Assembly: GCF_019931275.1 (NCBI RefSeq)
Contig: NZ_JAIOTY010000001.1
Location: 992,001 to 1,056,000 of the forward strand
Source: Nitratidesulfovibrio sp. SRB-5
GTDB lineage: Bacteria > Desulfobacterota > Desulfovibrionia > Desulfovibrionales > Desulfovibrionaceae
Length of the DNA stretch: 64,000 bases
Direction: 5' to 3'
The position numbers were made by a program, and so were the translations under genes. Positions 18,355 to 55,005 of this stretch are shown in pieces (the first letter of the stretch is position 1; the number at the start of each line of letters is the position of its first letter). A model generated the notes under the pieces. That model did no database searches, was not told the DNA's origin, and saw only the letters and a list, made by a program, of their open reading frames with translations.

Positions 18355-18489
18355 CGTGCCCCTATGGCCTTTTTGCCCACTGCATGCGTCGCAATGGTTT
18401 TATATTCCGGTCGGATACGCTGAGAGTGTCCTCCCTTCATGAAAACCATCCTTCCTTGGCAGAGAACAAGAATTCTCATAGCGGCAACA
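18355..18489 (+). repeat. Structured hairpin element, copy C
   Basis: One of three related elements in the window (others at 45035-45183 and 54863-55005). It starts four bases after the upstream stop codon. Outer arms GTGCCCCTAT (18356-18365) and ATAGCGGCAAC (18478-18488) pair imperfectly. The box TTTTTGCCC (from 18370) faces GAACAAGAA (18464-18472). The inner stem ATGGTTTTAT (18394-18403) pairs with ATGAAAACCAT (18439-18449). The apical core has ATAC, loop GCTGAGA, then GTGT, followed by CTCCCTTCAT. Core and boxes match the other copies, while the stems do not match in sequence. Drawn on the + strand; the orientation is inferred from the core. Confidence 0.7.
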
Positions 18490-18552
18490 GGCGCTCGCCA
18501 CTGGCTTGGCGTGTCCTTTCCCTGGAAAGGTCAGGCATCGGAAGATCGAAAT

Positions 18553-18582
18553 GCGACGTCCGGCGACACCGCCGGACGTCGC
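18553..18582. repeat. Perfect 13-bp hairpin upstream of the hydrolase gene
   Basis: GCGACGTCCGGCG pairs perfectly with CGCCGGACGTCGC around ACAC. No T-run follows. It lies 34 bp before the start at 18616, so it could affect read-through or translation of that gene. Confidence 0.5.
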
Positions 18583-18615
18583 TGCATATGGCGGCGACCG
18601 CCATGGGGAGGCCGG

Positions 18616-19470
18616 ATGGGAATGGATGCCGGAATGGGCGGGTGGAGCGGAGCCGTCGGGTTGTTCGCCAACGAGTCGCTGGAGTGGACGGGCAGGGCGG
18701 TGACCTATGCCGCGCCCGCCAGTTCCGCCGAGGGTGTGGGAACGGACGGTGATACGGTGGACTGCGAGGGGCGCCTGTTTTTGCCGGGCGGGTTCGGGGT
18801 TGCCGCTGAACAAGGGCAGCCCGGCGGCGTGCCCGGCGTATTGCTGCTGCACGAATACACCGGCCTTGGCGGCTACCTGTTCCGCAGCGCGGCGCGTCTG
18901 GTGCAGGCAGGGTATGCCGTGTTGTGCGCCGATCTGTACGGCACGGCGTTGCGCCCCACGGACGTCGGGCAGGCCCGCGCCTGTCTGCGCCCCCTGCGTG
19001 ACGACAGGGCGTTGTTGCACCTGCGCGCGCGGGCCGGGCTGGATGCGCTGGCCAGCGTGCCGGGCGTGGACGCGGACCGTCTGCTGGCCATGGGGTTTTC
19101 GCTGGGCGGCGGGGCCACGCTGGAACTGGTACGTGCCGGTGCACCCCTGCGCGGCGCCGCCAGCATGTACGGGTACCTTTCGTCGTCGCTGCCGGTGGCG
19201 CCCGGCGCGGCGCATTGCCCGGTGCTGGTGCATCTGGCCGGGCACGACCATGTCATTCCGCTGCGCGACGTCGAGCCCTTTGTCCGCGAGATGTCCGCCG
19301 CCAGCGTGGATTGCCGGGTGGTGCTGCACGCGGGTGCGGGTCACGGTTTCTGCAACGCGGCGTACGGGACGGCGTTCGACGCCGAAGCGTCCTGGCACTG
19401 CCCGCTCACGGAGGCCAGGGCCTGGGACGACGTGTTGCGTTTTTTCGCGGGGTGTCTGGAGGCCCGTTGA
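18616..19470 (+). CDS. Dienelactone hydrolase family protein (alpha/beta hydrolase)
   Basis: 284 residues. The nucleophile elbow is GFSLGGGATLEL, so the nucleophile is Ser rather than the Cys of classical dienelactone hydrolase. The acid is in HLAGHDHVIP and the catalytic His in GAGHGFCN. PGVLLLHEYTGLGGY is the oxyanion-hole region. The frame is open up to 18439, but GGGGAGG four bases before the ATG at 18616 and the position of the domain argue for this start. It is cytoplasmic with an unknown ester substrate, and convergent with the next gene. Confidence 0.85.
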   Translation: MGMDAGMGGWSGAVGLFANESLEWTGRAVTYAAPASSAEGVGTDGDTVDCEGRLFLPGGFGVAAEQGQPGGVPGVLLLHEYTGLGGYLFRSAARLVQAGYAVLCADLYGTALRPTDVGQARACLRPLRDDRALLHLRARAGLDALASVPGVDADRLLAMGFSLGGGATLELVRAGAPLRGAASMYGYLSSSLPVAPGAAHCPVLVHLAGHDHVIPLRDVEPFVREMSAASVDCRVVLHAGAGHGFCNAAYGTAFDAEASWHCPLTEARAWDDVLRFFAGCLEAR

Positions 19471-19598
19471 CCCCGTGGCCGGAAGCGTGACCCCGTGATC
19501 GGGGCCAAGGGCAGGCGCGGCGGTGCCGGGCGGTTGTTGCCGCAGGTCACGCGGCATCCTGCCGCTGCGGGGCTGCCCGTGGGAACGCGGTGCCGTGC

Positions 19599-20558
19599 CT
19601 AGAACTGCGGCATGGGCCGTTCGCGGTCGTCGGGGAACAGGCCGGGCTGGGGGGGCGTGGCCTTGCGCCGCGCGCCCAGCACGTTGGGCAGGGGTGCCGC
19701 GGCGTTGCCGCCGCTCCAGAAGTCTGCAGGGTGGCGGCCCATCCAGATGTCGGTGCGCACGGGGGTGCGCAGGTAGAGCCCGGCTTGCGGGCCGCCCTCC
19801 ACGTACATCACGTCGCGGATGTCGATGGGCAGCGCCAGCAGGATGGTGGCGAAGCGCCACGCCGTCAGCGGTTCGCGGCAGTGCAGGAACAGGATGGCCC
19901 CGGTGCCGTCCTGGCCCACGGCGGCCACCGAGTACAACGGCCCGCCCTGCGGCCACAGGATGCGCCGGTTGGCCCCGATGAGCCGGTAGTTCTGCACCGC
20001 CCCTCGGTACTGCGGCAGCAGCGTTTCCCACGGGTCGGCGGTGCGGTCCAGCAGGTCGGCCTGGGGCAGGTCGGACGAGAGCGGCCCGAACACGAAGAAC
20101 GCCCCCAGGTTGCCCCCGATGCGCGGGTTGTTCAGGTGCGCGCCGTTGCGCAGGTAGCCGGTGCTGGTGCGCGCGTCGGGCAGGTACATGCTGGCGTTGA
20201 TCACCGCGCTCAGATCGTGGCGGCGGGCCCATTCCGCCAGCGAGAGGGCGGGGGCGCCCTCTTCCGACGTGGTGTGCAGGCTGAATTCGTAGTAGGCGGG
20301 GTCGATGCGCAGGGCCACGATGCGTTCAGGGCTGTCGGGCGCGTCGGGCGCGGGAAAGATGCCCAGTTGCAGGCCGGTGTCCAGTTCCGTCCAGCCGGGG
20401 GCCTCGTCCGCCCGCGCCGTGCCCGCCGACACCAGCAGGCCCAGCACCGCCAGCACGGCAGCCGCCTTGCGCAGGGCGCGCGTGCAGCATCCCATGCGGC
20501 GGATGCCGGACGGGGCCGGGCGTGCGGACGTGGCGGGGGGCGTTGCGGTGATGGTCAT
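19599..20558 (-). CDS. Phosphodiester glycosidase (NAGPA-like) family exported protein
   Basis: About 319 residues. After an N-terminal export signal (AAAVLAVLGLLVSAGTARA, cleavage after ARA) comes a domain with SAVINASMYLPDARTSTGY, GGNLGAFFVFGP and VMYVEGGPQAGLYL. This is the pattern of PF09992, proteins related to the enzyme that uncovers mannose-6-phosphate. Bacterial members are thought to act on glycan phosphodiesters in the envelope. The start is uncertain: ATG at 20558 (used here) or ATG at 20495, which would place the signal peptide right at the N-terminus. Neither has a clear ribosome site. Confidence 0.8.
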   Translation of the reverse strand: MTITATPPATSARPAPSGIRRMGCCTRALRKAAAVLAVLGLLVSAGTARADEAPGWTELDTGLQLGIFPAPDAPDSPERIVALRIDPAYYEFSLHTTSEEGAPALSLAEWARRHDLSAVINASMYLPDARTSTGYLRNGAHLNNPRIGGNLGAFFVFGPLSSDLPQADLLDRTADPWETLLPQYRGAVQNYRLIGANRRILWPQGGPLYSVAAVGQDGTGAILFLHCREPLTAWRFATILLALPIDIRDVMYVEGGPQAGLYLRTPVRTDIWMGRHPADFWSGGNAAAPLPNVLGARRKATPPQPGLFPDDRERPMPQF

Positions 20559-20800
20559 GTCGGTATGGAGGGTGTGGCTGCGGTGGGTGGCCGGTACCAT
20601 GGCGGGTGCGTCATGGCGACATCCGGGCGTGGCAACGGTGCATGCGGCGGTGGGGGCGGCCAGCGCAAGCCGGACCAAGTCAGGCCGGGAAGGCCGACGG
20701 GACGGAAGACCCCCCTCTGTGCAGGCTGGCAGTGTAGGGGAAACCCTTGCGTGGCGCAACGGGCAGGTCAGCCCCGGCTGGCGCTGACCGCGAGGGTGGG

Positions 20801-20860
20801 GCCAGCCGGATCTGGGCCAGCCGGATCTGGGCCAGCCGGATCTGGGCCAGTCGGGGGTGG
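20801..20860. repeat. 15-bp tandem repeat, three perfect copies plus one degenerate
   Basis: GCCAGCCGGATCTGG occupies 20801-20815, 20816-20830 and 20831-20845; the fourth unit reads GCCAGTCGGGGGTGG. Confidence 0.9.
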
Positions 20861-20994
20861 GCACCACTGGGTTGGGCACGACGGGGTTGTGCGGCCCGGA
20901 CAGGACGAGCAGAAGCCGGATGCCTTGGCAACCCGTTTGGACAGTGCGGACCGGCAGTGATGGATATGTGGTGCGGCATGGTCACATTTCAATA

Positions 20995-21022
20995 TTGACA
21001 TATCAAGATAGCTTGATATAGA
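20995..21022 (+). promoter_or_regulatory. metF promoter overlapped by a SahR-like operator
   Basis: A perfect -35 TTGACA (20995-21000), a 16-bp spacer and TATAGA (21017-21022) make a strong sigma-70 promoter. The spacer is filled by the palindrome ATATCAAG-ATAG-CTTGATAT at 21000-21019. From memory this closely resembles the operator described for SahR, the ArsR-family regulator of methionine and S-adenosylhomocysteine metabolism in Desulfovibrio. Binding between -35 and -10 would repress metF. Confidence 0.75.
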
Positions 21023-21222
21023 GTCGGTCCATCACGTGAAGCGATGGGAAAAAGGGCCGGTCATGACGGGCTTGAGCAGGCCGGGTTCGGCCAACCCCAA
21101 GCTCATCCGGACCGGAGTTCATCCGGCCCCGAATTCATCCGGCCCGGTATGCGCACCCTGCGCGCCCCGCCCCCACACGACAGCACCCGCAGACGCCAGC
21201 CCCAGGCAGCAAAGGATACGCC

Positions 21223-22098
21223 GTGAAGATCAGAGACCGCATCGCCGCCAGCACCCGGCCCTTTTATTCGCTGGAATTCTTTCCCCCCAAGGAGCGGGAG
21301 AACTGGCCCGGCTTTTTCGCCACCGTGGAGCGGCTGAAGGCCTTGAACCCGCTGTTCGCCTCGGTCACCTATGGGGCGGGCGGTTCCACCCAGGACAACA
21401 CGCTGGAAATCACCTCGCACCTCAAGAACGTCATGGGCCTTGAGCCCATGGCCCACCTGACCTGCGTGGGCGCCACGCGCGAGCGCATCGCCGACTACCT
21501 GCGCCGCCTGCGCGAAGTGAACGTGGACAACGTGCTGGCCCTGCGCGGCGATGCCCCCAAGGGACAGGACATCGACTGGGGCACGGCGGAATTCCGCTAC
21601 GCCGCTGACCTGGTGCGCTTTACCCGCAACGAACAGCCCGAAATGGGCGTGGGCGTGGCCGGGTATCCGGCGGCCCACCCCGAGTCGCCCAGCTTCGCCA
21701 GCGACCTGCGCCATACGGCGGACAAGGTCAACGCCGGGGCGGACTTCATCGTCACCCAGCTGTTCTTCGATGTGCGCGAGTATTTCGACTTCGTGGAGCG
21801 GCTGCGCGCCATGGGCGTGACCGTGCCGGTGCTGCCGGGCATCCTGCCCATCCAGAGCCTGGAGTCGGTGCGGCGCATCCTTTCGCTGTGCGGGGCCAAC
21901 ATCCCCGGCAAGCTGTATCTGGAACTGGACGCCGCCAACGAGAAGGGCGGGGCGGAAGCCGTGAAGGAAGCGGGCATCGCCTTTGCCCAACAGCAGATTC
22001 GCTCGCTGCTGGACGGCGGTGCGCCGGGCATCCATCTGTACACGCTGAACCGCGCCGATACCTGCCTGCGCATCGCCGAGGCCGTGGGCATGCGGTAG
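21223..22098 (+). CDS. metF: 5,10-methylenetetrahydrofolate reductase
   Basis: 291 residues, the usual MetF size, a flavin-containing TIM barrel. Landmarks are YSLEFFPPKEREN at the N-terminus, THLTCVG-like HLTCVGATRERI, and LALRGDAPKG. It reduces methylene-THF to methyl-THF for methionine synthesis, and in anaerobes it may also connect to one-carbon pathways. The start is GTG at 21223, preceded by AAAGGA. About 200 bp upstream sits a strong promoter covered by a SahR-like palindrome, suggesting control by the methyl-cycle state. No other methionine gene is adjacent. Confidence 0.95.
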   Translation: MKIRDRIAASTRPFYSLEFFPPKERENWPGFFATVERLKALNPLFASVTYGAGGSTQDNTLEITSHLKNVMGLEPMAHLTCVGATRERIADYLRRLREVNVDNVLALRGDAPKGQDIDWGTAEFRYAADLVRFTRNEQPEMGVGVAGYPAAHPESPSFASDLRHTADKVNAGADFIVTQLFFDVREYFDFVERLRAMGVTVPVLPGILPIQSLESVRRILSLCGANIPGKLYLELDAANEKGGAEAVKEAGIAFAQQQIRSLLDGGAPGIHLYTLNRADTCLRIAEAVGMR

Positions 22099-22577
22099 TT
22101 GCCGCGTGACCTGGAACGCCGCACGGTCCGCTTGACTTTCCGGACTGCTTCGGCAATACGGAAGATGTTGGTTGATTAAACAGTTCGTATGCGCCGCAGG
22201 GCACCGAAACGGCGCGACGGACCTCACCGCACTTTCAGGCGAGGCACGGCACGGATGGCACCCGCGCCGGTCCGCGCAGGGTCGGGAACATTCGGTCATG
22301 GTACCGGCTGCGCAAGAGGGCTTGCCAGTTCCCGCCCGGCGCGACGCGCCGCCGCCAGCGGTCCAAGGCCCCCGGAGCCGCCAGGTCTCCGGGGGCTTTT
22401 TCCGTGGTCCGGGCCATGTCGGGCCGTACCGGGCCATGCACCACTCCCGCCATCCTTGCCCGGTTCTGGGGCTTCCTTTCCGGTTTTCCGCCTGCTGCCT
22501 TTCCGACCCTCCGGCCCATCAGGTTGACGCACCGTGCGCAAGGCGGTAGCACGGCACCATTCCAGACCGGAGCACCC
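22099..22577. other. Gap of about 480 bp between metF and the GT9 gene
   Basis: No supported gene. The metF-side end has TTGACT at 22132 with no good -10. A clear terminator closes the gap at 22368-22401, some 270 bp past the metF stop, so either metF has a long 3' untranslated region or an untranslated RNA is made here. Confidence 0.45.
22368..22401 (+). terminator. Rho-independent terminator
   Basis: GCCCCCGGAG (22368-22377) pairs with CTCCGGGGGC (22387-22396), followed by five T. Confidence 0.9.
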
Positions 22578-23693
22578 GTGAACAGCACCTCTTCCTCCCC
22601 CCCTCGCGAAGCCGAACAGCTTCCACCCGCCGGGTATTCCGGCCCTCCCGTCATCGCCCCGGCCAGCGTGCGGCGCATCCTGGTCTGCCAGTTGCGGCAG
22701 ATCGGCGACGTGCTGTTGGCCACCCCCTCGCTGGAACTGCTGCACCGCCACTTTCCCGACGCGGAAGTGCACGTGCTCACCGAGCGCAAGTGCACGCCCA
22801 TGCTGCAAGGCAACCCCGCCGTGCACACGGTGTGGGCCATCGACAAGAAGGACCTGGGGTCCCTTGCGCGCGAGGTGGCCTTCTACTGGCGGGTGGCGCG
22901 CTCCGGCTTTGACGTGGTGGTGGATTTTCAGCAGTTGCCGCGTTGCCGGTGGGTGGTGGCCATGTCGCGCGCGCGGGTGCGTCTGTCGTACACGCCCGCG
23001 TGGTACAACCGCTGGCTGTTCACCCACTGGGTGCGCCCGCGCGACGGGTATGCCGCCATGGCCAAGGCCAGCGTGCTGGAGCCGCTGGGCGTGCGCTGGA
23101 ACGGCGAACGTCCCCGCCTGTACCTGAGCGACACGGAACGCGACACCGCGCGCGCACTGCTGGCTTCACTGGGGCTGGCAGAGGGGCAGCGGCTGGTCAC
23201 CGTGGACCCCACGCACCGCCGCGCTACCCGGCGCTGGCCTGCCGCCCATTACGGCAGGTTGCTGTCACTGGCCGCCGCGCATGATCCCTCGTTGCGCTTC
23301 ATGCCGCTGTTCGGCCCCGGAGAGGAGGACGACGTGCGCGCCGTGGTGGACGCCTGCGACTGCCCGGAAAAGGTGCTGATGCCGGACCGCATGCTGTCGC
23401 TGCGCGAAATGGCCGCCTGCATGGCCGAGGCCGTGCTGCACGTGGGCAACTGCTCCGCGCCGTGCCATATCGCCGTGGCCGTGGGCACGCCCACCTTCGT
23501 GGTGCGCGGGGCCACCAGCAGGGCGTGGTCGTTCCCCGCGCCGGAACATTTTCACATGGCCCTGGGGCTGGACTGCCAGCCCTGCAACCGCAACGAATGC
23601 GCCAACCCCGACCAGTTGGCCTGCCTTGTGCGCCTGACGCCGGAATCGGTGTGCCGGGCCATGCTGGATCACCTGGCAGCCGTGTCGCGCTGA
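22578..23693 (+). CDS. Glycosyltransferase family 9 (ADP-heptose:LPS heptosyltransferase type)
   Basis: 371 residues. The domain starts RRILVCQLRQIGDVLLATPS, the GT9 N-terminal motif, and ends with HVGNCSAPCHIAVAVGTPT, where heptosyltransferases carry their nucleotide-sugar site. A motif with spaced cysteines (CQPCNRNECANPDQLACL) follows. The enzyme probably adds a heptose to the LPS inner core at the cytoplasmic face of the inner membrane. The start is GTG at 22578 with GGAG five bases upstream, and the longer open frame is rejected. It is a single gene with terminators or repeats on both sides. Confidence 0.88.
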   Translation: MNSTSSSPPREAEQLPPAGYSGPPVIAPASVRRILVCQLRQIGDVLLATPSLELLHRHFPDAEVHVLTERKCTPMLQGNPAVHTVWAIDKKDLGSLAREVAFYWRVARSGFDVVVDFQQLPRCRWVVAMSRARVRLSYTPAWYNRWLFTHWVRPRDGYAAMAKASVLEPLGVRWNGERPRLYLSDTERDTARALLASLGLAEGQRLVTVDPTHRRATRRWPAAHYGRLLSLAAAHDPSLRFMPLFGPGEEDDVRAVVDACDCPEKVLMPDRMLSLREMAACMAEAVLHVGNCSAPCHIAVAVGTPTFVVRGATSRAWSFPAPEHFHMALGLDCQPCNRNECANPDQLACLVRLTPESVCRAMLDHLAAVSR

Positions 23694-24200
23694 AGCGGGG
23701 GGGGGGCGCCCGCAGGCATGGCGGTCACGATGACCACGCGCAGCCATGCCATCCTGCGGATTGCGCAGCGCGGTTCCGTGGCTTCCGGTGCCGCATGCTC
23801 TTGCCCGGCGGACATTCCCTGACATTATAAGGCCAAGGGTGTGTTCGGGCTTTCGTGGCGGTGGGAAAGCGGTTACAGTGCCGGAGTTGTCCTCCGGTTC
23901 GTCCGGTTCGTCCGGTTCGGTTGTGTGAGATGGGCGGGATGGACGGGATGGGCAGGATGGGCAGGATGGGCGGGGAAGTGTGGGGTGGCGGGCGTGCCGC
24001 CCACGTCGGGTTGCGTCAGGTCCGGCGCATGGCCGTGCCCGAGCCTGCATCCGACCCTGCATTCGGCTTTGCAGGTGGCGTCTAGGCCGCGTGGAGCCGG
24101 GCCATGTTTCTGCAGTGTCATGCAACTCCGGGCTGCGTGCACGTAAACATGTGGGGAATTCATGCCGCGCCACTGTCGTTTTTGTCGCCATGCAACGCAA
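23694..24200. other. Non-coding gap with two 9-bp tandem arrays
   Basis: Roughly 500 bp between the GT9 gene and the tRNA-Lys terminator. CCGGTTCGT is repeated about three times at 23894-23919, and a GATGGGCRG unit five times at 23929-23973. Otherwise nothing is recognised. Confidence 0.6.
23929..23973. repeat. 9-bp tandem array, five copies
   Basis: Units GATGGGCGG, GATGGACGG, GATGGGCAG, GATGGGCAG, GATGGGCGG. No ribosome site supports translating it. Confidence 0.9.
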
Positions 24201-24232
24201 AAACCCCGCAGCGGGTTTCCACTGCGGGGTTT
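24201..24232 (-). terminator. Terminator of tRNA-Lys
   Basis: AAACCCCGCAG and CTGCGGGGTTT form an 11-bp stem. On the minus strand it is followed by TTTTTGCG. It lies ten bases beyond the tRNA 3' end. Confidence 0.8.
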
Positions 24233-24241
24233 CTCTTGCTC

Positions 24242-24317
<76 letters not shown>

Positions 24318-24403
24318 AGCGCCTCAACGCGAAGGGGAAACTAAAGAGAACCCGCTCTGAAGTCAAGCGGATTTTTTCAAGGTTCTTAATATTTTTCTAA
24401 AAT

Positions 24404-26599: not shown

Positions 26600-26646
26600 G
26601 CCGTGGGCTGAGCCGTGGGCCGATTGAGCCGTGGGCTGAGCCGTGG
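26591..26646. repeat. 28-bp perfect tandem duplication spanning the dsbD stop codon
   Basis: 26591-26618 and 26619-26646 are identical. The first copy includes the last codons and TGA of dsbD (26597-26599); the second is wholly non-coding. Confidence 0.93.
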
Positions 26647-26683
26647 TTGGCCGCAGGGCCGGTGAGCAGGCCTGAATGCGATG

Positions 26684-26716
26684 CGCCGTCCGGGGAATTC
26701 CCCGGACGGCGTTTTT
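26684..26716 (+). terminator. Rho-independent terminator of dsbD
   Basis: A perfect 28-bp palindrome (26684-26711, CGCCGTCCGGGGAA and its complement) is followed by five T. The stem is uninterrupted, so it may be bidirectional for the convergent gene ending at 26782. Confidence 0.88.
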
Positions 26717-26781
26717 CGCGCGCCGCCGAGAGGAGCGGCGCGCCGGTGCGATGCGTGCGGCAGGCTGCCGTTCGGTACGGG

Positions 26782-27300: not shown

Positions 27301-27332
27301 GTAAGGCTCCTTTGTTTCGGCGGGTTTTGTAG

Positions 27333-43419: not shown

Positions 43420-43778
43420 GCCGGTTTGGCCGCGTCGCCTTCAGGGCGCGCCCGGCGGGTGGTGCCGGATCGGCGCAGGCGGGCAATGTCCGACCCTCGG
43501 CCCATACCGTTGCCCCCGTGCACGTGTGCACGGGGGCGTCGCGTCTCTGCAATTCTGCTTGGCCGGACCTGCCGGAGATGGCAGGGCCGCGTTCCGGTGC
43601 ATGGCATGCGACACGGGCTGATGCCTGCGTGTGAAGAAGTGTCAGGCCGTGCAGCGCATCCTTGTCCGACGTGGTAAGCGCCTACTCCGCTCCTGTCATG
43701 TTTCCGTTGCCGCATCCAGCGCATGGGTGTAAGATGCCCAGCGAATTGACCGTACGTTTTGCCCCACAGGAGATGCAC
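43420..43778. other. Gap between uvrA and the NYN-domain gene
   Basis: About 360 bp. It holds a perfect 12-bp hairpin, GCCCCCGTGCAC with its complement across a two-base loop, at 43512-43537, probably ending uvrA transcription although no T-run follows. No gene. Confidence 0.6.
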
Positions 43779-45035
43779 ATGGGCCGATTTTCCGGCTTCG
43801 ACGAAGTATATGCCGCGCTGTATGTGGATTTCGACAATATCTATTCGCGCCTGCGCGAACAGGATGAAGACATTGCCCGCGCCTTTGCCACCAACCCCCA
43901 GCGCTGGGTGAAGTGGATAGAAGGGCATGCCCTGCGCATGTTGTACGGCGACGGGGTGCGCCGCCGCATCCTGAAACGCATCTGCTACATGAACCCGCAG
44001 TGCTTTCACGAGTTCCGTCCATTCTTCATCCGTGCCGCCTTTCAGGTGGTGGACTGCCCGCCCCTGACCAATCAGGGCAAGACCAGCGCCGACATCCATC
44101 TGGTCATGGACTGCATGGACGCGCTGAACCATTCCACCCGCTTCGACGAATTCATCATCCTTTCCGGTGACGCGGACTTCACGCCGCTGCTCATCCGCTT
44201 GCAGGAACACGCCCGCCGCCCGCTGGTGCTGTCCGTGGGCTATACCTCGCCCGCGTACACCGCCGCCGCCTCGTGGCGCATCCGCGAAGACTGGTTCGTG
44301 CAGCAGGCCCTGGAAGACGAACGTCCGGCGGAACCCGTCCCCGCGCCCGCCCCGTACGCCCCGCGCGGCAACGGCGAGCGGCTGGCCCGCGTGGCCGAGG
44401 TGGTGCGTCGCACCGTGGCCGATGCCTCCGCCCCCGTGGGCGTGGCCTCGCTGGCCCAGATCCTTCAGCGAGAGGTGGATCCCGGCGCGGACTGGTTCGG
44501 CTACGGTCGCCTGCGCGACCTGCTGGACGTGCTGGACCTGAAGGGGCTGGAGTTTTCGGCGGTGCCGCCCGGCTACCTGTACGACCCGGAACGCCATGAA
44601 CAGCCCGAGGAACGCGACGCCCACGACGACTTCCGCTCGCGCTACCCCGACCTGTACGACTTTGCCCTGAAGGTGCACCGCCTGACCGACATGCCCCTGC
44701 TGCGGCCCGACCATTTCCGGCAGCTGCTGGGCATCATCGTGGAAGAGGTCAATGCCAACGGGTTCTTCATGACCACCACCTCGCGCAACGTGCGCGACCG
44801 GTGCGTGGAGGCGGGCCTGCCCATTGCGCGGGGCCACGTGAACTTCGTGCTGGTGGGCATTGCGCGCGGGGGCTACCCCCTCAACGAGCAGGACGGCGTG
44901 AACCTGCGCGAGGTGGGCAAGGCCTTTCTGCGCAACGCCTACGACCTGTGCCGCATGTCGCAGATCGACCTGACCAAGGCGGAACAGCAGATGTTGCTGG
45001 TGTGGATACTCCCCAAGGAGTCCATGGGCGATTAG
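43779..45035 (+). CDS. NYN-domain protein with LOTUS/OST-HTH-like C-terminal modules
   Basis: 418 residues. The N-terminal PIN-like NYN domain (about 1-180) has its acidic metal residues in YVDFDNI (about 15-21), KTSADIHLVMDCMDAL and SGDADFTPL (129-137). After a Pro-rich linker, two winged-helix-like modules follow (about 200-275 and 290-400), the first with GVASLAQILQREVDPGADW, resembling the OST-HTH/LOTUS RNA-binding fold. The layout suggests a ribonuclease acting on structured or small RNA. AGGAG six bases before ATG 43779 decides the start over the ATG at 43773. A structured hairpin element begins at its stop codon. Confidence 0.85.
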   Translation: MGRFSGFDEVYAALYVDFDNIYSRLREQDEDIARAFATNPQRWVKWIEGHALRMLYGDGVRRRILKRICYMNPQCFHEFRPFFIRAAFQVVDCPPLTNQGKTSADIHLVMDCMDALNHSTRFDEFIILSGDADFTPLLIRLQEHARRPLVLSVGYTSPAYTAAASWRIREDWFVQQALEDERPAEPVPAPAPYAPRGNGERLARVAEVVRRTVADASAPVGVASLAQILQREVDPGADWFGYGRLRDLLDVLDLKGLEFSAVPPGYLYDPERHEQPEERDAHDDFRSRYPDLYDFALKVHRLTDMPLLRPDHFRQLLGIIVEEVNANGFFMTTTSRNVRDRCVEAGLPIARGHVNFVLVGIARGGYPLNEQDGVNLREVGKAFLRNAYDLCRMSQIDLTKAEQQMLLVWILPKESMGD

Positions 45036-45183
45036 GGTGGCCTCGCCACTGCGTTCTTTTTGCCCTCTGGCGTCGTCAGAACGATTTTTCATTCAAGTCG
45101 AGTACGAGAAGAGTACACTCCTTTCATAAAAAATCGTTCTTCCTCGCCAGAGAACAAAAATCTCCGCAGTGACAACGCCACCC
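45035..45183 (+). repeat. Structured hairpin element, copy A
   Basis: The outer arm starting at the upstream stop codon (45035-45053, ending CCACTGCG) pairs with 45165-45183 (starting CGCAGTGACAACG). The second box TTTTTGCCCTCTGGCG (45057-45072) pairs with CGCCAGAGAACAAAAA (45145-45160) except for two adjacent C-A mismatches, also seen in copy C. The inner stem AGAACGATTTTTCAT (45078-45092) pairs with ATAAAAAATCGTTCT (45126-45140). The apical hairpin is GTAC-loop GAGAAGA-GTAC, then CTCCTTTCAT. Same architecture as 18355-18489 and 54863-55005, with unrelated arm sequence. Confidence 0.75.
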
Positions 45184-46802: not shown

Positions 46803-47212
46803 GATGCCTCCGGATTGCAGATGGTGAAAAAGAAAAGGGTCCGGCATGTGCGGGCAGGAAATGACCTGTGGCCCCGACCATGAGAACGTGGGGGATCATG
46901 AGGAACTACATCGCCTTTTGTCGTCACAGTCAAGACATGAAACAAGGGATGCAGCGGAGGTGTGTTGCAGTGCGGCTGCAATTGAGGTGAGTGCGGAAAT
47001 TTTGCGCATGTTTTTTTGCGAATTCGTGACCGCATCCGTCGGTATCAGGCATGCCGCGCGAGTGACGAATAGCGCGAAGTGCATCATGCGTCTGACTATT
47101 TGCATAAGTTGTGTCTATCGAATCGTGTTGGTTGAATCGGCTATTCCGCTTTGTGGACCTTCCGCGCGGCGTATAGGGTGGGCGCCACTACCCATTACAC
47201 GCGGAGGTGTTC
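46803..47212. other. AT-rich divergent promoter region (aldehyde dehydrogenase / NifB-like operon)
   Basis: 410 bp, with AT-rich DNA at about 46960-47160. It should hold promoters for both directions. I found no convincing sigma-54 or sigma-70 pair. Short open frames here have no ribosome sites. Confidence 0.5.
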
Positions 47213-48073: not shown

Positions 48074-48893
48074 TGCGGGCGTGAGCACCGTGCATGCGGC
48101 GGGCGGCACGGCCAACCTGACGGAACTGAAGCCCCGTACCGTGCGCCAGGACGCGCGCGCCCGCGCCGTGCGCCTGTGGAACCGGGCGGCGCAGGCCGTC
48201 ATGCTGCTGCTGATCGGCCAGTGGTCGTTCTACGGCATCTTCCGCTGTCCTTTCGTGGTGCCGTACATCAGCTGCCAGAACTGTCCGGTGGTGGCCTGCC
48301 ACGGGCGGCTGTTCACCATGTTCTGGGGCGTGTGGGCCGGGTGGCTGGCGCTGGCGGCCCTGTTCGGACGCGCCTTCTGCGGGTGGGCCTGCCCCGGCGG
48401 CACGGTGAACCGCCTGCTGGGCCTGTTTGCGCCGCTGCGCCTGAAGCCCGGCGGCCTGGCCGCGCGCCTGCTGCCCTTCGGCAAGTACGGCGGGCTGGCG
48501 CTGGCACTGTGGGCCTACTTCGTGCTGGGGCAGCCGCGCGTCAACGTGCCCATCCGCACCGGGGAATTCTTCGGCGCGGTGGCCCTTACCTTCGAACACG
48601 CCATGCCGCTGTGGCTGGTGCGCACCTGGGCGGTGGCGGGCATCCTGGCGCTGGGCGTGGCGGTGTCCGCCGCGTGGTGCCGCTTCGCCTGCCCGGCGGG
48701 CGGCGTGCTGGAAGCGGTGCGCCGCTTCGCGCCGTTCTCGGTGTACAAGACCGACGCCTGCAACGGCTGCGACAGGTGCCGCAAGGCCTGCTACATGGCC
48801 ACGCGGCCCGAGGAAACCAACTGTACCAACTGCGGGGACTGCCTTGGCTCGTGCCCGCAGGACTGCATCGGCATGGGGCGGAAGCCGCGATGA
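48066..48893 (+). CDS. Membrane 4Fe-4S protein of the NapH/YccM type
   Basis: 275 residues with about four membrane spans. Conserved cysteine pairs sit beside the membrane segments: SCQNCPVVACHGR, FCGWACPGG and CRFACPAGG. A C-terminal double ferredoxin region follows, CNGCDRCRKAC and CTNCGDCLGSCPQDC (two [4Fe-4S] clusters). Relatives pass electrons from the quinone pool or cytoplasm to periplasmic or membrane enzymes. Here it overlaps the substrate-binding gene (8 bp) and the radical SAM gene (4 bp), so it may supply reducing power to the latter or act with the binding protein. Confidence 0.92.
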   Translation: MSDAGVSTVHAAGGTANLTELKPRTVRQDARARAVRLWNRAAQAVMLLLIGQWSFYGIFRCPFVVPYISCQNCPVVACHGRLFTMFWGVWAGWLALAALFGRAFCGWACPGGTVNRLLGLFAPLRLKPGGLAARLLPFGKYGGLALALWAYFVLGQPRVNVPIRTGEFFGAVALTFEHAMPLWLVRTWAVAGILALGVAVSAAWCRFACPAGGVLEAVRRFAPFSVYKTDACNGCDRCRKACYMATRPEETNCTNCGDCLGSCPQDCIGMGRKPR

Positions 48894-49822
48894 ACGCGGG
48901 CGATTCGCGCCATCCGTGCTTTACCGCCGGGGCGCACGGCACGCACGCGCGCATCCACCTGCCGGTGGCGGCGGCCTGCAACATCCGCTGCGGCTATTGC
49001 GACCGGCGGCACGACTGCGTCAACGAGTCGCGCCCCGGCGTGACCAGCCGCGTGCTGAACCCGGTGGAGGCCGCGCAACTGGTGGACCGGGCCGTGGCCG
49101 CGCTGCCGCACCTTTCGGTGGTGGGCATTGCCGGGCCGGGCGATCCGCTGGCCAGCCCCGGACCCACGCTGGAAACCCTGGCCCTGGTGCGCCGGGCGCA
49201 TCCCGGCCTGTTGCTGTGCCTGTCCACCAACGGTCTGGCCCTGCCGGACCATGTGGATGCACTGGCCGCGCTGGGCGTGGGGCACGTCACCGTGACCCTG
49301 AACGCCGTGGACCCGGAGGTGGGCGCGCGCCTGTACGCCCATGTGACCGGCGATGATGGCCTCGCGCTGCATGGCGCGGAAGGTGCGGCGCACCTGCTGG
49401 CCCGGCAGGAGGAGGGGCTGTCGCGCCTTGCGCGGGCGGGCATTGCCGTGAAGGTGAACACCGTGGTGGTGCCCGGCGTCAACGATGACCACGTGGAGGC
49501 GGTGGCCCGGCGCGCCGCCGCGCTGGGAGCATCGCTGATGAACTGCATCGGGCTGATTCCGGTTGCGGGTACGCCGCTGGGTGGCGTGGAAGCGCCGGGG
49601 CCGCGACTGATGGACGCCGTGCGCGCGACGGCGGGGCGTCATCTGCCCCAGATGCGCCACTGCGCCCGCTGCCGGGCAGACGCCGCCGGACTGCTGGGAG
49701 ACGGCGGCACGCTGGGCGGGCTGGGGCTGCTGCCCTTGCAGCCGGAGCACCCGCACCGTGGGCATGGCCTGCCGGATACGGCGGGCATGCCTCCCTGTGC
49801 CGGGCGGCGGCGCTGCGATTGA
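48890..49822 (+). CDS. NifB-like radical SAM protein
   Basis: 310 residues. It opens like NifB: HPCFTAGAHGTHARIHLPVA, then the SAM cluster triad CNIRCGYC (30-37), DCVNESRPGV (42-51) and, near the end, MNCIGLIPV and HCARCRADAAGLLGD. NifB uses SAM and two [4Fe-4S] clusters to build the carbide-centred NifB-co of nitrogenase, and the residues that hold those clusters appear conserved here. There is no NifX/NafY-like C-terminal domain, as in the short NifB forms. ATG at 48890 overlaps the upstream stop. The tail ends Pro/His/Cys-rich. No nif structural gene lies in the window, so the product could be a nitrogenase precursor made elsewhere or a different metal cluster. Confidence 0.9.
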   Translation: MNAGDSRHPCFTAGAHGTHARIHLPVAAACNIRCGYCDRRHDCVNESRPGVTSRVLNPVEAAQLVDRAVAALPHLSVVGIAGPGDPLASPGPTLETLALVRRAHPGLLLCLSTNGLALPDHVDALAALGVGHVTVTLNAVDPEVGARLYAHVTGDDGLALHGAEGAAHLLARQEEGLSRLARAGIAVKVNTVVVPGVNDDHVEAVARRAAALGASLMNCIGLIPVAGTPLGGVEAPGPRLMDAVRATAGRHLPQMRHCARCRADAAGLLGDGGTLGGLGLLPLQPEHPHRGHGLPDTAGMPPCAGRRRCD

Positions 49823-49881
49823 GACCACCGTGGTCCGGGGAATGCCCAACGCGCCTGCTGATCGAACTGCATGAAAAACAG

Positions 49882-49913
49882 AAGGACGCCGCCCCAACAC
49901 GGGCGGCGTCCTT
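49882..49913 (-). terminator. Terminator hairpin, copy 1
   Basis: AAGGACGCCGCCC pairs with GGGCGGCGTCCTT. On the minus strand it is followed by CTGTTTTTC, so it can end msrA-direction transcription. Confidence 0.7.
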
Positions 49914-50158
49914 CTGACTGCTGACAACCCCAAATTCTTCCGGGGGAGGGGCCCTTTTGGAAAAGGGTCTCCTCCCCCGGCCCCCTCCCCCCAAAACTTT
50001 CATTTGTGCTCCCTGCACATTCCGAAAGCACAAAACATGGGGCTTCCAAGGGGCGGCAGCCGCTCTGCGATCACCATCCGTAATGCTCGCAAGCTCGCAT
50101 AACGGCTGCTGTCCTTGGCCGCCGGAGTCGTCCAGAAACAGAAATTGTCAACAACCCG

Positions 50159-50186
50159 GGACGCCGCCCCATCACGGGCGGCGTCC
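50159..50186. terminator. Terminator hairpin, copy 2
   Basis: GGACGCCGCCC pairs with GGGCGGCGTCC around CATCAC. It is nearly identical to the hairpin at 49882. On the plus strand it is followed by TTTCTCG. It lies 35 bp from the msrA stop. Confidence 0.65.
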
Positions 50187-50220
50187 TTTCTCGTTTCCGG
50201 GTGGCGCCTTGCGCGCCGGA

Positions 50221-50907
50221 TCATTTTTCCGCGCCCCAGACCTGTTCCAGCCGCTTGTCGCGTCCGCAGCCGGTTCGATAGTAGGCGTAGCGGATGGGAT
50301 TCTTGCGGTAGTAGTCCTGATGGTATTCCTCGGCGGGCCAGAAGGTGGAGGCGTCTTCTATGCCGGTGGCCACCGGCTTGCCCAGGCGTGCCTCCGTCGC
50401 CTTCTTGCTGGCCTCGGCGACCTCGCGCTGCGCCGCATCGGCCACGAAGATGGCCGAGCGGTACTGGCTGCCCCGGTCGCAGAACTGGCCGCCCGCGTCC
50501 AGCGGGTCCACGTTGCGCCAGAAGACGTCCAGCAGCGTTTCGTACGTCACCCTGGCCGGGTCGTAGGTAACCCGCAGGGCTTCGGCGTGGCCGGTAAGGC
50601 CCGAGGACACCTGCTTGTAGGTGGGGGAATCCACGTTGCCCCCGGTGTAACCGGAGGTGGTTTCAAGCACGCCGTCCAGTTGGTCGAAGGGCTTTTCCAT
50701 GCACCAGAAGCAGCCCCCGGCGAACACGGCGGTGGCCGTTGCGGCGGCCTGGCGGGGGGGCGCGACTGCATCGTCCTGCGCGGCGCGGGCCGTGGCGGGC
50801 AGCAGCAGGGCGGCCAGCAACAGGGCAGAAAGAGGAAGAAGATGCGCCAGCGCGGCCAGTGCCGACGTTGCGGTCTCGATGAACGGGGACTGAAGCAGGG
50901 TGGACAT
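50221..50907 (-). CDS. msrA: Exported peptide methionine sulfoxide reductase MsrA
   Basis: 228 residues. The active site is GGCFWCMEKPF, and the rest (YTGGNVDSPTYKQV, ALRVTYDPARVTYETLL, YHQDYYRKNP) is classic MsrA. Unusually for MsrA it has an N-terminal hydrophobic signal (HLLPLSALLLAALLLPATARA), so it should work in the periplasm on methionine-S-sulfoxide of exported proteins. It needs a reductant, and the DsbD at 24404-26599 is a candidate. The ATG at 50907 is used (GGGAG ten bases upstream). The N-terminal 20 residues before the signal could belong to an alternative start. Confidence 0.93.
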   Translation of the reverse strand: MSTLLQSPFIETATSALAALAHLLPLSALLLAALLLPATARAAQDDAVAPPRQAAATATAVFAGGCFWCMEKPFDQLDGVLETTSGYTGGNVDSPTYKQVSSGLTGHAEALRVTYDPARVTYETLLDVFWRNVDPLDAGGQFCDRGSQYRSAIFVADAAQREVAEASKKATEARLGKPVATGIEDASTFWPAEEYHQDYYRKNPIRYAYYRTGCGRDKRLEQVWGAEK

Positions 50908-51088
50908 GATGCGTACTCCCTTGCCGGAGGCGGTGCGCCGGAAGTGGCGCGCCCCTTCGGGCATCATGTCAGATATAGCACGCCCGCGCCGGGAGTACAG
51001 GGGGATTGGGGCGACGTGGTGGCGGCGCGGGTGTATCGGCGGGACATGCCGGACGGTAGGCGCGGACGGCGGCGCGAACGGCGGTTGG

Positions 51089-52141
51089 CTATCCCCCGGC
51101 CCACATGTTCGCCAACCGCTGGCGGTGGTGCAGCAGGATGTCGCAGTAGTCCAGTTCCATGCCCAGCATCTCCCGGTCGCCCCTGCGCAGCCATTCCGAC
51201 AGCCAGCCGAAGCGGGATGCCAGCACCATCAGCGGCAGATGGCGCAACATATCGGCCCCCATTCCGGCAAGCTCGTACGGGGCCACGCCCTGGCGCAGCG
51301 CGGTGGTGAACCCGGCGGCAAAGCCGCGTCCAAGGCCAGAGGGGTGCTCGAAACCCACGCAGCCGATGCAGTTGGCGGCGTCGTACAGCGCGGGCTGCGC
51401 CCCGGCGAATTCCCAGTCGATGACCCCGCGCAGCGCGGCCAGCGGTTCGCAGGTCGGTGGTCCGCTGCCATCCGCCGGGGCGTCGTCGCCTTTGCCGCAG
51501 GGCGCCCAGATCAGGTTCAGGGGGTGGGCATCGCCATGGGCCAGCACCACCGGTTGGGCGGCCAGCACGTCGGGCAGGGCCTCCAGCGCGTCGCGTACCG
51601 GGTGCAGGCGGCGGGCGGCCTCCGGCAGGCGGCGGGCCACCGCCTCGTGCAGCCCGGCGATGAACGCGGGCAGCGGGGGCACCGGCGCGGGGGGCAGTCC
51701 GGCGGGCAGGTTGTCACCGGCCCGGTGCAGGGCCAGCAGCAGGGCGGCCACTGCGCGCCCGCGCCAGTCGTGGTCCAGATAGTCGGGGCGGGGCGGTTCC
51801 GCGCCGGGCACGAAGGGCGAAAGCTGCCAGTACCCGGCATGGGGCGGGGTGTCCGCCTTGAGCACATGGCGCAGGTCGCCATCCTCCACCGGCAGATACG
51901 CGGGCACCAGCGCGGCCAGTTCCGGGCCGGACACGGCAGGGTCCGCCAGTTGCGCCAGCAGGTCGCCCATGGCCTCGCGCCGGGAAACCTGCGTCGGGGC
52001 CAGCCGTTCCAGCATCCACAACCGCCCGTCGTCGCCCTGCACCGCCGTGCGGGTCAGGCAGCGTTCCGGGCTGCCGGGCAGGGGAAATTCCGTGGCCAGG
52101 CGGCGCGGGGTGATGCCGAAACGGTACAGCAGGTCGAGCAT
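51089..52141 (-). CDS. Aminoglycoside-phosphotransferase-fold (APH/choline kinase) protein
   Basis: 350 residues. The kinase catalytic loop is VVLAHGDAHPLNLIW (HGDxHxxN) and the metal motif follows as GVIDWEFAGA (DWE). The N-lobe is less conserved. This fold covers homoserine, choline, fructosamine and antibiotic kinases; substrate unknown. GGAG lies six bases before ATG 52141, and the longer open frame to 52333 is rejected. Divergent from the DEAD-box helicase. Confidence 0.85.
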   Translation of the reverse strand: MLDLLYRFGITPRRLATEFPLPGSPERCLTRTAVQGDDGRLWMLERLAPTQVSRREAMGDLLAQLADPAVSGPELAALVPAYLPVEDGDLRHVLKADTPPHAGYWQLSPFVPGAEPPRPDYLDHDWRGRAVAALLLALHRAGDNLPAGLPPAPVPPLPAFIAGLHEAVARRLPEAARRLHPVRDALEALPDVLAAQPVVLAHGDAHPLNLIWAPCGKGDDAPADGSGPPTCEPLAALRGVIDWEFAGAQPALYDAANCIGCVGFEHPSGLGRGFAAGFTTALRQGVAPYELAGMGADMLRHLPLMVLASRFGWLSEWLRRGDREMLGMELDYCDILLHHRQRLANMWAGG

Positions 52142-52433
52142 GAAAACTCCGGGGCGGTTGGCGTGGAGGCTGCGGTGGCCGGAAAACGGAAGGGCGCAGT
52201 GTTCCATGCCGGGGGCGCCGTGTCCAGTTCGGTCAGGGGCGGCAAGGAGACGGCAAGGATCTGCCAGGGCGCGGCAGAGGAAATGCGGCATACGGAGCGG
52301 ACCGCGCGTCCGGACCTTTCCCGGCATTGCCACGGTCGCCGGGGCAACGTAGTATCACCCGGCGTTGCGGTCCCGCGTTCCGCGTTCCGTGTCCGAACAG
52401 CCCGGCCCCCGGCCATTCCGGAGTGTTTCCGCC

Positions 52434-54119
52434 GTGACCTTCGCCGAACTGCCCCTTGACGCCCGCCTGCTGGCCGGGGTGGAAAGCATGGGCTACCATC
52501 TGCCCACCCCCGTGCAGCGCCGGGCCATTCCCGCCGCGCTGTCCGGGCGCGACGTGCTGGCGCTGGCCGCCACCGGCACGGGCAAGACCGCCGCCTACGC
52601 GTTGCCGCTCTTGCAACGCCTGCTGGAAGGGCCGCGCGGGCAGGTGCGGGCGCTGGTGGTGGCCCCCACGCGCGAACTGGCCGAACAGATTCACGACCAT
52701 ATCCGACGGCTGGGCTCCATGACCCGCCTGCGCTCCACCACCATCTACGGCGGGGTGGGCATCATGCCGCAGACCCTGCGGCTGCGCACCGGGGTGGAGA
52801 TCGTGGTGGCCTGTCCCGGGCGGCTGCTGGACCATCTGCGGCGCGGCCACCTGAACCTTTCCGCCCTTGACGTGCTGGTGCTGGACGAGGGCGATTCGCT
52901 GTTCGAACTGGGTTTTCTGGCCGACGTGCGGACGCTGCTGGCCGCCGTGCCCGCGCGGTGCCAGCGCATGCTGTTTTCCGCCACGTTGCCGCAGGCCGTG
53001 CAAGGCCTGGCGGGCGAGGCCCTGCGCGACCCCGTGACCGTCAGCGTGGACGCGCAGGCCCCGGCGGCCACCGTGGACCATGCCCTGTATCCGGTGCCCG
53101 CCCACCTCAAGACCCCGCTGCTGAAGGCCATGCTGCGCGCCCGGCTGCTGCCCGGCGTGGCTGCGCACGCCGGGACGGCCCATGAGCCCGGTATGCCCGG
53201 TATGCCCGATATGCCCGATATGCCCGATATGGCGGACATGCCTGATGACATCGGCGGCGGCATTGATGACGAGGGTGACGACGGCTTTGACACCGACGAA
53301 GGTGGCGCTTTCGCCGGGGATACGGCCGGCGGCCATCCGCCCCTGCATTTCGTCGAGGACGAACCCCTGGCCGGCGCGGTGCTGGTGTTCGTGCGCACCC
53401 GGCACGGGGCGCGCCGCCTGTGGCAGCAACTGGCTTCCACGGGGCTGCGCGTGGGATGCCTGCAAGGCAAGCTTTCGCAGCGGCGGCGCCAGGCGACCCT
53501 GGACGGGTTTCGCACCGGGCGCTACGCCGTGCTGGTGGCCACCGACGTGGCCGCGCGCGGGCTGGACATTTCGCGGGTGACCCACGTGGTGAATTACGAC
53601 GTGCCCGCCACGGCGGACGCCTACATCCACCGCATCGGTCGCACCGGTCGCGCCGCCCGCGCGGGCACGGCCATGACCCTGGTGGCCCCCGGCGACGAGA
53701 CGGCGGTGCGCCACATCGAGCGCGCCCTGGGCGGCCCGGTGACCCGCTGCCGCTTCGAGGGCTTCGACTACGGCGCGACGGCGCGCAGCCCGGAAGGGGC
53801 GCGCCCCGCCTTGCCGCCCCGGCAGGCCCGCCTGCCCGGCGGGCGCAAGCCGCAACTGCAACCCGCCGAGGCCCCGGAACCGCCGCGCCAGCCCGTCCGG
53901 CCCCGTCCGGCCCGCCATGCCGTGCCCCCGGCGGCCCAGGGCGGCGCGCCGCAGCCGCAGGGGCAGCAGGCGGCCAAGTCCGCCCGGCCGCAGCCCGGCC
54001 CCGGCACTTCCGGGCATGCGGGGCAGGATGGGCGCGCCAAGGCCGGTCGGGACGGCATGGGGCGCGAGGGTGGGGGACGTGGCCCTTCCGGCGGCTCCGG
54101 TTCCCACTCCGCAGGCTGA
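52434..54119 (+). CDS. DEAD-box RNA helicase (DEGD variant)
   Basis: About 561 residues. N-terminal RecA domain: TPVQRRAIP (Q motif region), AATGTGKT (45-52), PTRELAEQ, motif II as DEGD (151-154) instead of DEAD, and SATLP. C-terminal domain: ATDVAARGLDI and HRIGRTGRAAR (about 398-408). Between them is an insert (about 243-302) containing MPDMPDMPDM repeats and an acidic stretch. The C-terminal tail (about 445-561) is Pro/Gln/Arg/Gly-rich, as in RNA-binding tails. It unwinds RNA duplexes, perhaps in ribosome assembly or mRNA turnover. GTG at 52434 gives the family N-terminus TFAELPLDARLL; GTG at 52389 is an alternative. Confidence 0.9.
   Translation: MTFAELPLDARLLAGVESMGYHLPTPVQRRAIPAALSGRDVLALAATGTGKTAAYALPLLQRLLEGPRGQVRALVVAPTRELAEQIHDHIRRLGSMTRLRSTTIYGGVGIMPQTLRLRTGVEIVVACPGRLLDHLRRGHLNLSALDVLVLDEGDSLFELGFLADVRTLLAAVPARCQRMLFSATLPQAVQGLAGEALRDPVTVSVDAQAPAATVDHALYPVPAHLKTPLLKAMLRARLLPGVAAHAGTAHEPGMPGMPDMPDMPDMADMPDDIGGGIDDEGDDGFDTDEGGAFAGDTAGGHPPLHFVEDEPLAGAVLVFVRTRHGARRLWQQLASTGLRVGCLQGKLSQRRRQATLDGFRTGRYAVLVATDVAARGLDISRVTHVVNYDVPATADAYIHRIGRTGRAARAGTAMTLVAPGDETAVRHIERALGGPVTRCRFEGFDYGATARSPEGARPALPPRQARLPGGRKPQLQPAEAPEPPRQPVRPRPARHAVPPAAQGGAPQPQGQQAAKSARPQPGPGTSGHAGQDGRAKAGRDGMGREGGGRGPSGGSGSHSAG
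53188..53241. repeat. 9-bp in-frame tandem repeat in the helicase insert
   Basis: GGTATGCCC/GATATGCCC units repeat five to six times and encode MPG/MPD tripeptides. The 9-bp period keeps the frame. Confidence 0.85.
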
Positions 54120-54370
54120 CAGGCATCCCGGCCCGCGCGGAAGCGGCAGGGGGCCGGAACACGATCCGGCGACCCCGGTCCGGCACCCGGCGCATCGGCT
54201 TGAACCACGGCGCGCCCTTTGCTACATCCTGTGTCCTCATGCGGGATCGGAAGGCCGTTTCCGTGCCCGGCAGATCGTGACCGGTCCAAGCGGGCCAACG
54301 CGCACGGCCAGCCGGTCCCCAGAACACGTTTCAATCCGCGTGCCCACGCACGCTTCATCCGGAGGTTCGC

Positions 54371-54862
54371 ATGCCCTCGTTCGACGTGGTCAACAAGGTC
54401 GAGATGCAGGAACTCGACAACGCCGTGAACAACGTGAAGAAGGAAGTGGACACCCGCTACGACTTCCGCAATTCCGTCACCGAAATCGAACTGCATCGCG
54501 GTGACAAGCGCATTCACCTGCTGGCGGGCGATGAAATGAAGATGCGCGCCCTGCAGGACATGCTGCAATCCCACTGCATCCGTCGCAAGGTCGATCCCAA
54601 GTGCCTGGAGTTCAAGGATATCGAGCCGACGTCCAAGGGCCAGGTCAAGCGCGACGTGGTGATCCAGGAAGGCATCACCAAGGATGTCGCCCAGAAGATC
54701 GTCAAGAAGATCAAGGATTCTAAACTGAAAGTGCAGGCCGCCATCCAGGACGACCAGGTGCGCGTGACCGGCAAGAAGATCGACGACCTTCAGGAAGTCA
54801 TCCAGTTGCTGCGGGGGGAGGAGTTTGGCGTGCCTCTTCAGTTCGTCAACATGAAGGCCTAA
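54371..54862 (+). CDS. yajQ: YajQ family nucleotide-binding protein (UPF0234)
   Basis: 163 residues, the family length. Landmarks are [29 protein letters not shown] and [15 protein letters not shown]. Some homologues bind cyclic di-GMP or interact with RNA and tRNA; the role here is not determined. GGAGG precedes the ATG closely. The structured hairpin element B starts right after the stop codon. Confidence 0.94.
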
Positions 54863-55005
54863 GGGCTGCCTCCTGATTGTCTTTTTGTCCGTTGGCTTTG
54901 TTAAACTTCGCCTGCCATATCGGTCGAATACGATAAGAGTATACTCCCTCATGGCAGGCTCGTTTTCCTCGCCAACGAACAAAAATCCTAATCAGGAGAC
55001 AACCC
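54863..55005 (+). repeat. Structured hairpin element, copy B
   Basis: Outer arm GGGCTGCCTCCTGATT (54863-54878) pairs with AATCAGGAGACAACCC (54990-55005) with two mismatches. TTTTTGTCCGTTGGC (54882-54896) pairs with GCCAACGAACAAAAA (54971-54985). The inner stem GCCTGCCAT (54910-54918) pairs perfectly with ATGGCAGGC (54951-54959). The apical hairpin is ATAC-loop GATAAGA-GTAT, then ACTCCCTCAT. Same core as copies A and C. Confidence 0.75.

What the first reader, a model, noticed from the sequence alone, without database searches (positions are those of the whole stretch)
18355..55005. Three copies of a structured hairpin element with covarying stems and a conserved core
Copies at 18355-18489, 45035-45183 and 54863-55005 share three conserved spots: a left box TTTTTG(C/T)CC, a right box GAACAARAA, and an apical core of the form GTCGRRTACG..RAGAGT..CTCCYT.CAT. 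Around these, each copy forms an outer stem, a middle stem and an inner stem. The inner stems are AGAACGATTTTT, GCCTGCCAT and ATGGTTTTAT in copies A, B and C: unrelated words, each with its own complement at the right place. Even the apical hairpin covaries (GTAC/GTAC, ATAC/GTAT, ATAC/GTGT). Two adjacent non-pairing positions beside the TTTTTG box recur (CC against AA in A and C; only one of the two mispairs in B). This is the pattern of a conserved structured RNA, or of a palindromic mobile element whose arms drift while pairing is kept. I do not recognise it as a named family. All copies begin zero to four bases after a stop codon.
Basis: seen in the sequence. Interest (0 to 1): 0.82.

Follow-up and report, generated by a model that had tools for sequence, protein, structure and literature searches.

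The report
Mobile hairpin repeats at stop codons
The three hairpins belong to a family of about 150-base palindromic DNA repeats, about a hundred in this Desulfovibrio-like bacterium and also found in relatives, that come and go between species and mostly sit exactly at the stop codon of a gene; what moves them is unknown.

Summary
A covariance model from 20 copies finds 105 matches (E<=0.01) in this genome and matches in 20 of 59 genomes searched, own included: 8 of 8 in the genus, 3 families of the order. No Rfam match. Of 46 pairs, 30 changed on both sides; 92.9% of cells pair against 73.8% in shuffles.

Three results say that resident copies are mobile DNA, not a maintained RNA. (1) Of 106 alleles read at 18 sites in 7 other species, 35 hold the element; 17 of 18 sites lack an intact one somewhere. 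(2) The same stop codon carries different subtypes in different species. (3) G-U and A-C mismatches are about equal (56 against 63).

About 90 of 97 copies abut a gene's stop codon on the same strand (18 by eye). GTAG REPs are a published precedent for repeats that supply stops. This family is longer and differently built, and 6 of 8 genus genomes show no Y1 transposase.

Best reading: non-autonomous palindromic elements, moved in trans as folded DNA, target TA(R), here mostly stop codons. The enzyme and any true stop-codon targeting are open.

The parts
18352..18502 (+). Copy A (type I), directly after TAG 18349-18351 of the gene at 17764-18351
   Evidence: 103 bits; outer ends set by eye
18370..18378 (+). 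Copy A left box TTTTTGCCC
18410..18441 (+). Copy A apical core
18464..18472 (+). Copy A right box GAACAAGAA
45034..45183 (+). Copy B (type I), at TAG 45033-45035 of the gene at 43662-45035
   Evidence: 145 bits; outer ends set by eye
45057..45065 (+). Copy B left box TTTTTGCCC
45097..45127 (+). Copy B apical core
45152..45160 (+). Copy B right box GAACAAAAA
54861..55007 (+). Copy C (type II), at TAA 54860-54862 of a 163-aa gene (yajQ by recall)
   Evidence: 156 bits; outer ends set by eye
54882..54890 (+). Copy C left box TTTTTGTCC
54923..54952 (+). Copy C apical core
54977..54985 (+). Copy C right box GAACAAAAA

Best explanation
This is a family of non-autonomous mobile palindromic DNA elements of about 150 bp. 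Each is one long hairpin of five stacked helices with short conserved internal loops (TTTTTG-CC/AA-CAAAAA, CGTC/TTCCT, and a GTCG..TAC..AAGAGTA..CTCC apex). Shown: copies appear and disappear between species, the same stop codon carries different subtypes in different species, and most copies lie in the sense orientation right behind a gene, without a consistent target-site duplication. Inferred: an enzyme supplied in trans recognises the folded strand and inserts it at TA(A/G), so that a stop codon is kept or remade; insertions elsewhere are mostly lost to selection; after insertion a copy drifts. The arm-matching differences between subtypes arose in the lineages that still moved, because folding is needed to move.
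For: Copy number: 105 hits at E<=0.01. Pairing: 30 of 46 pairs changed on both sides, controls far lower. Polymorphism: 35 of 106 alleles in 7 other species filled (30 by model at the site; 5 more by left and right boxes; sequences). Four sites are filled only in G000, with 6 or 7 other species lacking the element and keeping alignable sequence: C1:1206966, C1:182799, C2:586345, C8:8163. At C1:1206966 host sequence resumes right after the element. Different subtypes sit at the copy A, B and C sites. Position: 72 of 102 by rule plus 18 by eye abut a gene's stop; 36 of 50 in other genera by a looser ORF rule without a null. No wobble preference: GU 56, AC 63, p=0.58. A second small hairpin repeat is nested in several copies.
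Against: No mobilising enzyme was found: Y1 transposase and reverse transcriptase do not track the element, and no autonomous copy was seen in this genome (40 of 54 candidates scored). Polarity is ambiguous at several sites, where an unfilled allele may be a deletion remnant (C2:799007, C1:294374, C5:60493, copy C site in G005). A model in which the element splits T|RR of the stop was only weakly supported: 18 of 43 right flanks AG/AA/GA against a local 25% (p=0.012), with other offsets equally high. Before five pairs with fixed mismatches were set aside, raw counts for 60 copies were GU 117 and AC 94, 38 of the GU from one pair. The GU/AC result speaks for resident copies only.
Confidence: 0.66

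Rival explanations
1. A cis-acting structured RNA at the 3' end of mRNAs: a sense-strand hairpin opened by the terminating ribosome, acting on mRNA stability, processing or transcription termination.
For: Sense orientation and stop adjacency; strong covariation; conserved unpaired boxes; raw GU 117 against AC 94 before fixed mismatches are set aside.
Against: GU 56 against AC 63 after setting aside 5 of 46 pairs; 71 of 106 orthologous alleles have no intact element at the stop; recombinant mispaired copy at site B in G005 (by eye).
Confidence: 0.15
2. A classical MITE of a TA-targeting DDE transposon (IS630 or IS5 type, named from recall) with GGGGCTG/CAGCCCC inverted ends and TA duplication.
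For: Type II ends are inverted repeats; some copies have TA on both sides, such as C5:60493, C1:641004 and C2:1587857 in G000 and L367, L373 and L402 in G033.
Against: Of 43 copies with a paired terminal A:T, 17 have A after the right-hand T, so 26 lack TA there; the orientation is fixed relative to the gene in copies at stops; the outer arms differ from copy to copy, while DDE enzymes usually need constant ends (recall).
Confidence: 0.2
3. A REP/BIME-type element moved by a RAYT (Y1 HUH transposase).
For: Palindromic, sense, supplies TAG stops as GTAG REPs do (PMC3733652, passages).
Against: The left flank is not G-TAG: C, T and G all occur before TA.
Confidence: 0.1
4. Retrotransposition primed or targeted at mRNA ends.
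For: Stop-codon docking in sense is what an mRNA-targeted process would give.
Against: No RVT_1 match at E<=1e-8 in 6 of 8 genus genomes; 5 of 20 carriers against 16 of 39 non-carriers have one.
Confidence: 0.04

Closest known systems
GTAG-tagged REP elements / BIMEs (PMC3733652, passages seen)
   Same: Palindromic, high copy, mostly downstream of genes; [quoted passage not shown]
   Different: REPs are 20-40 bp and tied to RAYT genes; this one is about 150 bp, multi-helix with internal boxes, has no GTAG tag and no tracking Y1 gene.
CGTC-tagged REPs (same paper, passages)
   Same: An unpaired CGTC directly before a hairpin recurs here (inner stem), and the paper states that no dedicated transposase is apparent.
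   Different: Here CGTC lies inside a longer hairpin, not at the element's end; sizes differ. Likeness only; family consensus sequences were not compared.
Bacterial MITEs (RUP, Correia/NEMIS, YPAL/RU-2; PMC2229807, passages)
   Same: Under 200 bp, non-coding, hairpin-forming, intergenic; many with TA ends; YPAL mobility inferred from empty and filled sites.
   Different: No consistent target duplication seen; fixed orientation and zero distance to stop codons in most copies. IS families with matching ends were not searched.
B. cereus bcr1 repeat (recalled; seen only as table rows and a reference in PMC2267715)
   Same: About 150-bp mobile stem-loop repeat with a conserved fold.
   Different: Different taxon; no sequence comparison made; stop-codon docking not known to me.

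Membership tests
Any Rfam RNA family | Score above the family's gathering threshold | tested here: not met
   Whole window: only two tRNAs. Copy C at E<=10: three matches of 13-18 bits, far below their gathering scores.
REP / RAYT system | Y1 (RAYT) transposase gene in the carrier genome | tested here: not met
   No match in 6 of 8 genus genomes.
REP / RAYT system | GTAG tag at the hairpin foot | tested here: not met
   TAG/TAA is common at the left end but is preceded by C, T or G.
MITE of a DDE transposon | Target-site duplication on both sides | tested here: inconclusive
   TA follows the right end in 17 of 43 copies with paired terminal A:T; C1:1206966 shows no duplication by eye.
MITE of a DDE transposon | Autonomous IS with the same ends | tested here: inconclusive
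   No split or long copy among 50 pieces in this genome (candidate cap reached); IS families not searched.
Conserved cis-regulatory RNA | Wobble pairs tolerated above A-C mismatches on the transcribed strand | tested here: not met
   GU 56, AC 63 over 60 copies and 41 pairs; 5 pairs with a fixed mismatch set aside. Raw counts with all 46 pairs: GU 117, AC 94.
Mobile palindromic element | Filled and empty orthologous sites in close relatives | tested here: met
   35 of 106 alleles filled; G000-only gains at 4 sites.

The most novel reading that the evidence does not exclude
A mobile element that homes to stop codons as such: insertion is coupled to translation termination (for example to mRNA or DNA exposed at a terminating ribosome), not merely to the DNA word TAR, with the element handing the gene a fresh stop codon.
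Probability: 0.1. Interest if true: 0.92.

Novelty: new variant of a known kind. Interest (0 to 1): 0.6.

Why it matters
This is a large repeat family, unnamed as far as I could search, in Desulfovibrionales: 105 copies here and 46, 46 and 87 in three other genera. It remodels the 3' ends of conserved genes (a nuo-type operon, glnS, mraY and yajQ by recall of their sequences). It gives natural pairs of filled and empty alleles for testing what a hairpin abutting a stop codon does to termination, mRNA decay and operon coupling, and a target for finding a new mobilising enzyme. It also cautions that arm covariation in palindromic DNA can pass structured-RNA tests; the GU/AC comparison helps to separate the two.

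Tried and rejected
Rfam: nothing above threshold. Plasmid collection with the type II composite and phage collection with the type I composite: no match. IMG/VR pattern scan: one contig, L358 (model hit 92 bits); its ORFs were listed but not studied. Y1 transposase and reverse transcriptase as mobilisers: not supported by distribution. 'The element splits T|RR of the stop and leaves the rest on the right': weak. Integron attC sites: considered from recall because they also sit after stops and vary in sequence under a constant fold; no R-box ends were noticed by eye, no formal test. Three-symbol motif table: its middle symbol is too loose and was ignored; only left and right boxes were used. 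Literature: no report of this repeat noticed in the listings of searches of the held open-access library, nor in the passages seen of PMC3733652, PMC2817692, PMC2229807 and PMC2267715.

Limits of counts. Of 106 hits, five weak ones (C1:1217053, C2:739525, C3:248233, C1:98807, C2:899776) were not fetched. The 102 copies are the unique hits in fetched stretches plus copy A. The 18 by-eye assignments are mine and a few (C1:1416326, C1:1096659, C1:888898) are less sure. 97 = 102 minus 4 tandem second copies and 1 at a contig start. One search placed 110 of 126 possible alleles (18 sites, 7 species); 106 were fetched, 4 were not (G002:C435, G005:C2:675106, G003:C95, G006:C86). The copy A site's only unfilled allele (G004) has a diverged look-alike and was counted as unfilled. 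In one search I used 48 of the 50 genes, which are heuristic calls.
Full report
Observation. B and C fold much better than shuffles; A, the most worn, does not by itself. Rfam has no match above threshold.

Family. A pattern search in the window's genome found six copies of this kind, the three in the window and three more, plus one unrelated match. A typed composite of type I found 50 matching pieces. Twenty full copies were aligned: 46 pairs in five helices, 30 with changes on both sides; 92.9% of cells paired against 73.8% in shuffles and 40-47% when partners are slid. The model gives 105 matches at E<=0.01 in the 4.12-Mb genome. In a wider search 20 of 59 genomes (own included) match: 8 of 8 in the genus with 46 or more hits each (51 scored at most per genome), and patchily other genera and two more families of the order. 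Three other genera have 46, 46 and 87 matches at E<=1e-6.

Anatomy. From outside in: a copy-specific outer stem of up to about 20 bp starting at the stop codon; TTTTTG/CAAAAA with a CC/AA internal loop; a middle stem (CTCTGCC/GGCAGAG in type I, CGTTGGC/GCCAACG in type II); a loop with CGTC against TTCCT; an inner stem; and the apical core. Copies A and B are type I, C is type II. Some copies carry a second, 50-60-base hairpin repeat in one of three unpaired places, and that repeat also occurs elsewhere (50 matches, 40 of 88 candidates scored). The palindrome is symmetric enough that many copies also match the model on the other strand, at lower score.

Position. In 72 of 102 copies the stop codon of a gene with coding-like third positions lies within -6 to +12 of the model start, on the same strand (TAG 54, TAA 13, TGA 5). 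For 18 of the other 30 I see the gene stop at the true left arm by eye, mostly once the nested insert is allowed for. Four are tandem second copies, seven are elsewhere, and one is at a contig start. In other genera 36 of 50 copies fall at an ORF stop by a looser rule without a null: G048 only 1 of 4, G033 6 of 10, G051 5 of 7, G015 9 of 12, G026 9 of 11. Is that more than a TAR target? In the window TAR stops number 33-34 against 125 non-coding TAR triplets on both strands, but only 8 to 18 sense TARs lie within 50 to 200 bases downstream of genes. Against those nulls 90 of 97 has p from 6e-4 (50 bases) to 1e-51 (all non-coding). So a plain TAR target plus loss of harmful insertions explains most of the bias, and true stop specificity is possible but not shown.

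Mobility. Eighteen sites were looked for in seven other species (110 of 126 alleles placed; 106 fetched; read). Of 106 alleles, 35 are filled: 30 found by the model at the site (two further model hits there lie downstream on the other strand and were not counted) and five with nested inserts recognised by their boxes. Only the copy B site is filled in all species read. At yajQ (name recalled), Desulfovibrio sp. A2 has no element and a MAG of the same genus has another subtype at the same codon. At the copy A site the species carry type I, type II, or type II with nests, and G004 a diverged look-alike. Four sites are filled only in G000 while 6 or 7 relatives keep alignable unfilled sequence (C1:1206966, C1:182799, C2:586345, C8:8163), which I read as gains. 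At C1:1206966 host sequence continues right after the element with no duplication; at C1:182799 and C2:425718 about 8-15 bases after the stop are missing (by eye). Some alleles are remnants: a fused pair of outer arms at C2:799007, left arms only at C5:60493, a truncated copy at yajQ in G005.

RNA or DNA. If the transcript had to fold, G-U cells should exceed A-C cells. Over 60 copies and 41 pairs (5 pairs with a fixed mismatch set aside) GU is 56 and AC 63; inner helices alone give 23 and 28. Raw counts over all 46 pairs are GU 117 and AC 94, 38 of the GU from one pair. At the copy B site G005 carries what looks like a recombinant of two lineages with a mispaired inner stem. Resident copies therefore do not look held by RNA folding. 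The matched differences between subtypes show that folding mattered in the lineages that gave rise to copies, or that arms are copied onto each other in DNA; I cannot separate these.

Enzyme. Y1 transposases and reverse transcriptases each give no match in six of eight genus genomes. No autonomous copy was seen in this genome. The type II composite has no match in the plasmid set and the type I composite none in the phage set.

Known relatives. GTAG REPs supply TAG stops and lie downstream of genes; CGTC REPs lack an apparent transposase (PMC3733652, passages). Small MITEs, many with TA ends, are reviewed in PMC2229807 (passages). The present family resembles their lifestyle but fails two defining tests of the REP/RAYT class and is unresolved for DDE MITEs. 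I file it as a new variant of mobile palindromic repeats.

Noticed in passing
window 50061-50108 and 49 other matches in the genome: A second, 50-60-base hairpin repeat (CATCCGTAAGGTTCGC..GCTCGCCTAACGGCTG) that also nests at three unpaired places inside the main element.
   Followed up: partly
window, 50 heuristically called genes: TAG is the commonest stop codon (30 of 50), which is unusual for a bacterium (recalled).
   Followed up: no
L125 (G000:C1:347417-347796), L130, L132: Tandem runs of two or three elements behind one gene, with only the first at the stop codon.
   Followed up: no
L358 6287-6439 (IMG/VR contig): One copy on a contig classed as viral (92 bits); may be host-derived.
   Followed up: partly
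L116 (G000:C2:263637): An upstream reading frame without a stop before the element seems to run into it, which would give the protein an element-encoded tail (by eye).
   Followed up: no
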